Assembly (NCBI GenBank): GCA_039111635.1
Contig: JBCAQO010000001.1
Location: 2,790,001 to 2,854,000 of the forward strand
From: Heterobasidion occidentale
Taxonomy: Eukaryota; Basidiomycota; Agaricomycetes; Russulales; Bondarzewiaceae
DNA: 64,000 nucleotides
Direction: 5' to 3'
Shown here: positions 48,950-60,276 of the stretch, in pieces
Layout: the number at the start of each line of letters is the position of its first letter
How positions within the stretch are numbered: position 1 is the stretch's first letter
Made by a program: the position numbers and the translations under genes
Notes under the pieces: model-generated
Told to the model about the DNA's origin: nothing
The model's input: only the letters and a program-made list of their open reading frames with translations
Databases searched by the model: none

Positions 48950-49054
48950 GCCTGGTTGGCTCAGTTGGTTAGAGCGCAAGTCTCATATTATACATATGAG
49001 TGATCAACAAATCACGTAATCTTGAGGTCGTGAGTTCGACCCTCACACCGGGCA
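48950..49054 (+). tRNA. tRNA-Met(CAT), elongator, with a 31-nt intron
   Basis: The acceptor stem GCCTGGT pairs with ACCGGGC and the discriminator is A. The D-arm is GCTC-AGTTGGTTA-GAGC with G18-G19 present. The anticodon loop is CTCATAA with anticodon CAT at 48984-48986. The T-arm is GTGAG-TTCGACC-CTCAC. A 31-nt intron (48988-49018) follows A37; its ATGAG can pair with the CTCAT of the anticodon, as nuclear tRNA introns do. A run TTTTT at 49057 serves as Pol III terminator. The loop CTCATAA and stem fit elongator, not initiator, tRNA-Met. Confidence 0.93.
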
Positions 49055-49222: not shown

Positions 49223-49323
49223 GCCTGGTTGGCTCAGTTAGAGCGCAAGTCTCATATTATGCATATGAGTGATCAACAAATCACGTAATCTTGAGGTCGT
49301 GAGTTCGACCCTCACACCGGGCA
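49223..49323 (+). tRNA. tRNA-Met(CAT) copy 2, with D-loop deletion (possibly a pseudogene)
   Basis: Near-identical to the copy 273 bp upstream, including the intron (one A-to-G change in it). The D-arm is GCTC-AGTTA-GAGC, so 4 nt including G18-G19 are missing. Acceptor, anticodon and T-arms are intact. A terminator of four T follows at 49327-49330. The flanks are unrelated to copy 1. The lost G18-G19 normally pair with the T-loop, so folding and charging may be impaired. Confidence 0.85.
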
Positions 49324-59409: not shown

Positions 59410-60276
59410 ATGGACAGTTGGAGAGTAGCCGTGCTGGGCGACGGTGGTGTCGGGAAAACGGCGCTGGCTGTTCAGGTGCGTCGTCCCGCATAATCTTTTT
59501 CAAGCCGCGACGGATAAACATGATTACATAGTTCACGCTTAACTGCTTCGTCGGTAAGTCCATCTTGATCTTGAATATCAGAAGGGGAGCGACTGAGCTT
59601 TTGAATCTTTTCGCCTCCTTCTCGCAGAGGTAAGCGATGGTTTCAACCGTTGAATACTTCTGGAATGACGGCCGGATCTTAGACTTATGATCCTACAATA
59701 GAGGATGCGTATAGAAAGCAACTTGTAGTCGACAATCGGATGTGTTTTGTAGAGGTTATTGACACTGCGGGTCAAGGTACGACTCTTGCTCCCGAAATCT
59801 CTTCTCTCTTATGCTCACCGATCATCAAGAGGAGTACGCAACTTTACGCGACCAGTGGGTGCGGTGAGTTATGGGATGAGAGATACATGTCTGTGCTCTT
59901 TCCTCACCACTTTCTCAGCGAGGGTCAAGGATTTATCCTTGTGTATTCCATCGCGTCGCGGGCGACATTTGATCGTCTGGACGTCTTCCGCCAATCAATG
60001 ATGCGGGTGAAACGTCAAAAGCCTATTTTTATGCTCGTTGGCAACAAGTGTGACAAAGGATACGAACGGGAGGTTTCTCGAGAGGAGGGGCAAGCGCTGG
60101 CGCGGCAATTTGGTTGCGATTTCCTGGAGACATCCGCGAAAACAGCACAAAATGTGGAGCGTCTCTTCACAAGCCTTGTCCGCATGCTTCGTAACACGAA
60201 ACAGACAGAGCAGGCATTGGCAACCCCCGGGAGGCCACTCGAGAAGGAGAAGAAGCGGAAATGTATTATCATGTAG
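59410..60276 (+). CDS. RAS: Ras-family small GTPase with CAAX tail
   Basis: 191 residues with human-Ras numbering preserved. P-loop GDGGVGKT (residues 10-17), FVETYDPTIEDAYRKQ (28-43; effector Y32, T35), DTAGQEEYATLRDQW (D57, Q61), then GQGFILVYSIASRATFDRLD, VGNKCDK and DFLETSAKTAQNVERLF. It ends in lysines and the farnesylation box CIIM. Coding exons: 59410-59475 (about 66 nt), 59532-59553, a 2-nt exon AG at 59628-59629, then from 59683 on. Glu30 needs the 2-nt exon. Residue 11 is Asp, where animal Ras has Ala. Ras GTPases control cAMP signalling, morphogenesis and mating in basidiomycetes; a specific role is not deducible. Stop at 60274-60276. Confidence 0.92.

What the first reader, a model, noticed from the sequence alone, without database searches (positions are those of the whole stretch)
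59532..59702. Two-nucleotide exon AG in a Ras gene
Seen: the exon at 59532-59553 ends GTC G before GTAAGT, and the next recognisable coding sequence (ACT TAT GAT CCT) starts at 59683 after CTTAG. Direct joining breaks the frame. Between them lies CGCAG-AG-GTAAGC at 59620-59635: a perfect acceptor, two bases, a perfect donor. Using AG as an exon gives V29-E30-T31-Y32 and keeps every Ras landmark at human numbering (G12, K16, T35, Q61). Known: microexons below about 10 nt need special recognition, and recursive splice sites can create such intermediates. Inference: this is a genuine 2-nt exon or a zero-length-like recursive site that leaves two bases in the mRNA.
Basis: partly seen in the sequence, partly recalled or inferred. 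Interest (0 to 1): 0.85.

Follow-up and report, generated by a model that had tools for sequence, protein, structure and literature searches.

The report
Two-base exon in fungal Ras gene
A mushroom-type fungus (a Heterobasidion or very close kin) appears to build its Ras switch protein from six exons, one of which is only two bases long, and the same tiny exon seems to be shared by many mushroom-forming fungi, whose public gene models often get it wrong.

Summary
The Ras gene at 59410-60276 (+) needs bases 59628-59629 (AG), between a canonical acceptor (CGCAG) and donor (GTAAGC), to restore frame and give V29-E30-T31-Y32. Of 671 one- or two-intron GT-AG forms tried, 71 stay open in frame; this one scores best against Ras. 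Such motifs are rare by chance (0-3 of 20,000 shuffles; 29 for any frame-restoring length). Omitting AG gives a stop at codon 32.

Relatives support it. The top-ranked public protein, Heterobasidion irregulare HETIRDRAFT_413838, equals the window product except that V29-E30 is missing. Of 85 annotated relatives 47 are disturbed at this junction; of 107 transcript-like ones none has an insertion or deletion there. A Schizophyllum amplum model differs from a transcript-like protein only by the missing VE. Misread Mycena and Sanghuangporus models are compatible with YAG-AG-GT.

Best reading: a constitutive 2-nt microexon, probably ancestral in Agaricomycetes, spliced sequentially by intron definition. 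Caveats: no RNA of this species seen, no fungal orthologue DNA found, and a GT-TT intron 59554-59680 would give the identical mRNA.

The parts
59410..59475 (+). Ras exon 1 (66 nt, start codon, P-loop)
59476..59531 (+). intron 1 (56 nt, GTGCGT...ATAG)
59532..59553 (+). exon 2 (22 nt, FTLNCFV + first base of codon 30)
   Evidence: residues FTLNCF present in most of the 192 relatives held, with the variants listed
59554..59627 (+). intron A (74 nt, GTAAGT...TCTCGCAG)
   Evidence: donor matches 7 of 9 positions of the U1 complement
59628..59629 (+). 2-nt exon AG (bases 2-3 of the Glu30 codon)
   Evidence: relatives
59630..59682 (+). intron B (53 nt, GTAAGC...CTTAG)
   Evidence: donor matches 7 of 9 positions of the U1 complement
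59683..59776 (+). exon 4 (94 nt, TYDPTIED... to the first base of codon 62)
59777..59829 (+). intron (53 nt)
59830..59863 (+). exon 5 (34 nt)
59864..59918 (+). intron (55 nt)
59919..60276 (+). exon 6 (358 nt incl. stop; protein ends in CIIM, a CaaX-type tail)

Best explanation
AG at 59628-59629 is a genuine, constitutive 2-nt coding exon of a Ras gene, probably shared by Agaricomycetes generally. Both flanking introns are short (74 and 53 nt) and carry complete GT-AG ends, so each can be recognised across the intron (intron definition). The 3' splice site of intron A and the 5' splice site of intron B are only 2 nt apart, so they probably cannot be occupied at the same time. Splicing is therefore sequential: whichever intron goes first fuses AG to a full-size exon, and the second intron then has ordinary neighbours. 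Shown here: the sequence, the frame, the ranking of splice forms and the pattern in relatives. Inferred: the order of steps, steric exclusion, constitutive use, conservation and age.
For: Frame and Ras landmarks. Best of the 71 open forms among 671 tried: score 320 against an independent orthologue, next 303, 300, 299, 299. Motif improbable by chance. The H. irregulare model is identical bar V29-E30 and sits on a contig of other length (3,591,957) than the window's (4,136,843), so an error of one assembly is unlikely. Junction disturbed in 47 of 85 annotated relatives, but no insertion or deletion in 107 of 107 transcript-like ones (Fisher 4e-20, rows not independent, one VQTY substitution counted as non-standard). 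The 10 annotated rows also held by jgi or lgn all have VE (10 of 10). S. amplum genome model P0089 equals transcript-like P0022 minus VE. Misread models, by back-translation: Mycena indigotica compatible with intron A 56 nt, AG, intron B 58 nt (null 405 of 20,000); Sanghuangporus sanghuang with intron A 89 nt then CAG-AG-GT (null 252 of 20,000); Armillaria ostoyae and Lentinula guzmanii with a whole retained intron A of 51 and 69 nt ending at Glu; Pyrrhoderma and Desarmillaria with GAG followed by GTRNGY.
Against: No RNA read of this species was available. No orthologue DNA from another fungus was found, so conservation rests on protein models and on back-translation, which is degenerate. The transcript-like label is mine, from source codes; only one of the 107 (P0126, eukprot) has a header that looks like a transcript ORF. 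38 of 85 annotated models have VE, whether by a 2-nt exon or by intron loss is unknown. Two models (FVGTYDP, Jaapia and Mycena galericulata) are unexplained. A GT-TT intron would give the same mRNA. Branch points were not identified.
Confidence: 0.92

Rival explanations
1. A single canonical GT-AG intron 59550-59682 with donor TTC|GTCGGT: the protein lacks V29-E30, as in the public H. irregulare model.
For: In frame, GT-AG; the product equals the deposited P0001 exactly; 30 of 85 annotated models have the same CF-TYDP form. Any Val codon starts with GT, so this fallback is open to a gene finder.
Against: Donor fits the U1 complement at 4 of 9 positions, against 7 of 9 for the overlapping GTAAGT. 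None of 107 transcript-like relatives has this form. It loses two residues of the Ras switch I region. For S. amplum a transcript-like protein has VE.
Confidence: 0.03
2. One non-canonical GT-TT intron 59554-59680 keeps the AG of CTTAG; mRNA identical to the 2-nt exon form.
For: Gives the same protein (first 60 aa printed); needs no microexon.
Against: Needs a TT 3' end right beside a normal CTTAG; leaves CGCAG-AG-GTAAGC at mid-intron unexplained (0 of 20,000 shuffles); read-through models of M. indigotica and S. sanghuang are compatible with the same internal motif.
Confidence: 0.03
3. Another small exon: introns 59554-59597 + 59630-59682 (32-nt exon, FVAFESFRLLLAETYDP) or 59554-59634 + 59640-59682 (5-nt exon, FVAMTYDP).
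For: Open and in frame, 3rd and 2nd best of the scored forms. The Epithele and Hericium models extend the exon leftward in a similar way.
Against: Adds or changes residues absent from the 107 transcript-like relatives; one 43- or 44-nt intron and atypical sites.
Confidence: 0.01
4. Recursive site without trace (introns 59554-59629 and 59630-59682), or a broken gene or assembly error.
For: GTAAGC directly follows CAGAG, so a zero-length form is physically possible.
Against: Gives VDL* (skip form); the rest of the protein is intact and identical to that of a model from another contig.
Confidence: 0.01

Closest known systems
Arabidopsis APC11 1-nt exon (PMC4674806; part 1 of 3 of the text read)
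   Same: Ultra-short constitutive exon between canonical sites, needed for frame, missed by annotation; shown there by base substitution.
   Different: 1 nt, plant, within a 422-nt annotated intron; here 2 nt, fungus, introns of 74 and 53 nt, no experiment.
Conserved plant microexons incl. 1-nt exons of APC11 and VPS55 (PMC8831610; passages)
   Same: Deeply conserved, widely misannotated, hard for read aligners.
   Different: Plants; '2-nt', '2 nt' and 'fung' do not occur in its main text.
Fungal microexons: Trichoderma Xlr2 (PMC11121469; introduction and passages); Phanerochaete P450 genes, shortest exon 6 bp (PMC1184071; passages)
   Same: Very small exons in filamentous fungi.
   Different: P450 exons are larger; Xlr2 is a regulated switch, its size not noted here.
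Stwintrons (PMC5639578; passages)
   Same: Consecutive splicing by intron definition in fungi.
   Different: There one intron interrupts a splice element of the other; here both have complete ends and two exon bases remain.
Recursive splicing / RS-exons (PMC6224609; passages)
   Same: Two-step removal with a 5' splice site next to a fresh junction.
   Different: Here two bases stay in the mRNA and the donor lies 2 nt past the junction.
Sago palm genome, shortest annotated exon 2 bp (PMC8760474; passages)
   Same: A 2-bp exon in print.
   Different: An entry in an annotation summary for an uncharacterised gene, beside a 5-bp 'shortest intron'; no test or conservation in the passages seen.

Membership tests
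Ras small GTPase | PF00071 above cut-off | tested here: met
   176.2 bits, cut-off 21.6
Ras small GTPase | G12, K16, T35, Q61 and a CaaX-type tail | tested here: met
   tail CIIM
Ultra-short constitutive microexon | Flanked by canonical acceptor and donor with complete introns on both sides | tested here: met
   CGCAG-AG-GTAAGC, introns 74 and 53 nt; branch points not examined
Ultra-short constitutive microexon | Needed for the reading frame | tested here: met
   skip gives VDL*
Ultra-short constitutive microexon | Present in mature mRNA | tested here: inconclusive
   No RNA of this species; 106 of 107 transcript-like relatives have VE, one VQ
Ultra-short constitutive microexon | Changing the exon bases changes the mRNA bases | not testable with these tools
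   needs a minigene
Stwintron | Internal intron interrupts donor, branch point or acceptor of the external intron | tested here: not met
   donors and acceptors of both introns are complete; branch points not examined
Recursive splice site (no trace) | AG|GT juxtaposed, nothing kept | tested here: not met
   nothing kept gives a frameshift

The most novel reading that the evidence does not exclude
A 2-nt coding exon in the switch I region of Ras has been kept since the common ancestor of the Agaricomycetes (disturbed or revealing models in Russulales, Polyporales, Agaricales, Boletales, Hymenochaetales, Gloeophyllales and Corticiales; order names recalled), forcing two-step splicing of a core signalling gene and distorting about half (47 of 85) of the annotated orthologues examined.
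Probability: 0.75. Interest if true: 0.7.

Novelty: new member of a known kind. Interest (0 to 1): 0.62.

Why it matters
It would be among the smallest coding exons known, and in a fungal gene whose protein family leaves little doubt about the right reading. It gives a clean test of how the spliceosome handles two introns 2 nt apart, fits the idea that intron definition makes such exons tolerable, and means that many public Ras models of mushroom-forming fungi lack or garble residues 29-30 of switch I. My ten library searches (seen as listings) showed no title or abstract start about a 2-nt exon in a fungus. The three papers that matched a 2-nt/2-bp exon phrase were looked into: a sago palm annotation table with a 2-bp exon, and two unrelated uses of the words. 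The library lacks most subscription papers, including older mushroom ras cloning papers (recalled), so prior notice cannot be excluded.

Tried and rejected
The window's genome has no relatives held and gives no file (stated). The canonical ras paralogue (L012) reads FVDEYDP without an intron at this codon, so it neither supports nor refutes the microexon. L013-L017 were fetched but not analysed. The RNA duplex energies were set aside: the row for the rival donor was one base off, and duplexes can slip; the position matches replace it. In one search the rows for P0007 and P0179 were parsed wrongly (a second CFV motif); one search corrects them. For P0179 one search prints 'donor GTRNG False' because the peptide ends four bases into the donor; that part is untestable. 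The test 'codon before Glu can end in YA' (5 of 5 models; two are Lentinula and share sequence) is weak, since 9,661 of 20,000 random residues pass. FVGTYDP models (Jaapia; one M. galericulata) are unexplained. PMC3990503 (passages) only mentions a microexon mapping option. No branch-point scan and no structure prediction was run.

Full report
What is there. The window holds a complete Ras-family gene at 59410-60276 on the + strand with six exons of 66, 22, 2, 94, 34 and 358 nt and five introns of 56, 74, 53, 53 and 55 nt. The joined CDS is 576 nt and encodes 191 aa ending in CIIM. Pfam PF00071 scores 176.2 bits, and human KRas (7kyz) aligns over residues 2-191.

Why two bases are needed. Exon 2 ends GTC G and exon 4 starts ACT TAT. 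Direct joining gives VDL and a stop at codon 32. CGCAG-AG-GTAAGC lies between them; using AG gives GTC GAG ACT TAT (V29 E30 T31 Y32). With exon 1 and the start of exon 2 fixed, I enumerated 671 one- or two-intron GT-AG forms between 59532 and 59776 (introns at least 35 nt); 71 stay open and end in VIDTAGQ. The 2-nt exon form scores 320 against Dichomitus squalens P0002 and 314 against S. commune Ras1p P0066; the next four score 303, 300, 299 and 299 against P0002. In 20,000 dinucleotide shuffles, YAG-AR-GTRAGY appeared 0 times, YAG-NN-GTRAGY 2 times, YAG-NN-GTRNGY 3 times and five frame-restoring lengths with GTRNGY 29 times; by window density the last expectation is 0.069 per 129 nt.

Identity of the organism. 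The top-ranked protein hit is Heterobasidion irregulare TC 32-1 HETIRDRAFT_413838 (P0001). It equals the window product exactly once V29-E30 are removed. Its contig length (3,591,957) differs from the window's contig (4,136,843), so I take these as different assemblies of the same or a very close species (inference). The deposited model is what a gene finder obtains by using the GT of the Val29 codon as donor (inference; the form is).

Relatives. Three protein searches reported 1523, 7913 and 7686 hits (the last two from capped candidate sets); each lists 120, 192 distinct proteins in all, and only these were examined. I split them by the source codes in the listings into 85 annotated rows (ncbi/uniref/nr) and 107 rows held only by jgi, lgn, ena or eukprot, with longest contigs of about 0.9-7.9 kb where given. 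I read the latter as transcript-like, because a complete uninterrupted frame of about 190 aa on such contigs is what spliced RNA gives (inference; the tool does not label them RNA). Annotated: 38 VE; 47 disturbed, of which 30 are CF-TYDP, 4 lack FTLNCFVE altogether and 13 have other forms. Ten annotated rows are also held by jgi or lgn; all ten have VE, so among the 75 purely annotated rows 47 are disturbed. Transcript-like: 106 VE, 1 VQ, no insertion or deletion in 107. Fisher p = 4e-20 (counting the VQ row as non-standard); rows share ancestry and pipelines, so this measures contrast and is not a true probability. The Schizophyllum amplum genome model P0089 is identical to the transcript-like P0022 except for the missing VE.

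Fossils in misread models. Some bad models translate parts of the introns and so reveal DNA. Mycena indigotica P0159 reads through the whole region: its peptide permits a donor G|GTRNGY directly after Val, then YAG-AG-GTRNG at a spot that makes intron A 56 nt and intron B 58 nt (405 of 20,000 random window peptides of that length allow such a site). Sanghuangporus sanghuang P0179 permits intron A of 89 nt followed by CAG-AG-GT near its end (252 of 20,000); the rest of that donor lies outside the peptide. Armillaria ostoyae P0130 and Lentinula guzmanii P0144 permit an in-frame retained intron A of 51 and 69 nt and stop exactly at Glu. Pyrrhoderma P0063 and Desarmillaria P0127 read GAG, then a GTRNGY-compatible donor (375 of 20,000 random dipeptides allow GTNNG). 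Mycena rebaudengoi P0176 permits GTRNGY after Val, Marasmius P0124 GTRNG but not GTRNGY. Not explained: Jaapia P0004 and M. galericulata P0138 (FVGTYDP). These are compatibility tests on degenerate codons, not reads of DNA. The taxa span several orders of Agaricomycetes (order names recalled, except Russulales for Heterobasidion).

Mechanism. Shown: both introns are short with complete ends; the rival donor GTCGGT fits the U1 complement at 4 of 9 positions, GTAAGT at 7 and the microexon donor at 7 (consensus recalled). The three bases before the microexon donor are GAG both before and after removal of intron A (from the sequence), so its near context does not change. Inferred: the sites 2 nt apart are used in turn by intron definition. 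That splice sites pair by intron definition in filamentous ascomycetes, and that nested introns are spliced consecutively, is stated in PMC5639578 (passages); the window's fungus is a basidiomycete. CAGAG offers a competing acceptor 2 nt downstream, whose use would give the stop at codon 32; whether the fungus uses this as an off-switch is unknown.

Limits. No RNA of this species, no orthologue DNA. AG is repeated at the end of intron B, so the 2-nt exon form and a GT-TT intron 59554-59680 give the same mRNA; substitution tests or partly spliced RNAs are required. The own-genome canonical ras paralogue has no intron at this codon.

Known or new. Ultra-short exons are known: 1 nt in Arabidopsis APC11 (PMC4674806, part 1 of 3 read) and in plant APC11/VPS55 (PMC8831610, passages). 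In fungi, microexons have been described (PMC11121469, introduction and passages; PMC1184071, shortest P450 exon 6 bp, passages). Phrase searches for a 2-nt exon gave three papers and none; of the three, one is a sago palm annotation table with a 2-bp exon and two use the words otherwise. The listings showed no title or abstract start on a 2-nt exon in a fungus. I therefore file it as a new member of a known kind, notable for its size, kingdom, gene and probable age.

Noticed in passing
59532-59553 and 59830-59863: The same gene has two more small exons (22 and 34 nt); exons 2 and 3 together are 24 nt, so skipping both keeps frame, as 4 of 85 annotated relatives do.
   Followed up: partly
48950-49054 and 49223-49323: Two tRNA genes found by Rfam but not by ARAGORN (0 genes); their lengths (105 and 101 nt) suggest introns.
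   Followed up: no
L012 (own genome C4:1700500-1704500): Canonical ras paralogue with FVDEYDPTIE uninterrupted by an intron and other intron positions.
   Followed up: partly
public protein models: 47 of 85 annotated orthologues examined are disturbed at Ras residues 29-30, apparently a shared annotation error.
   Followed up: partly
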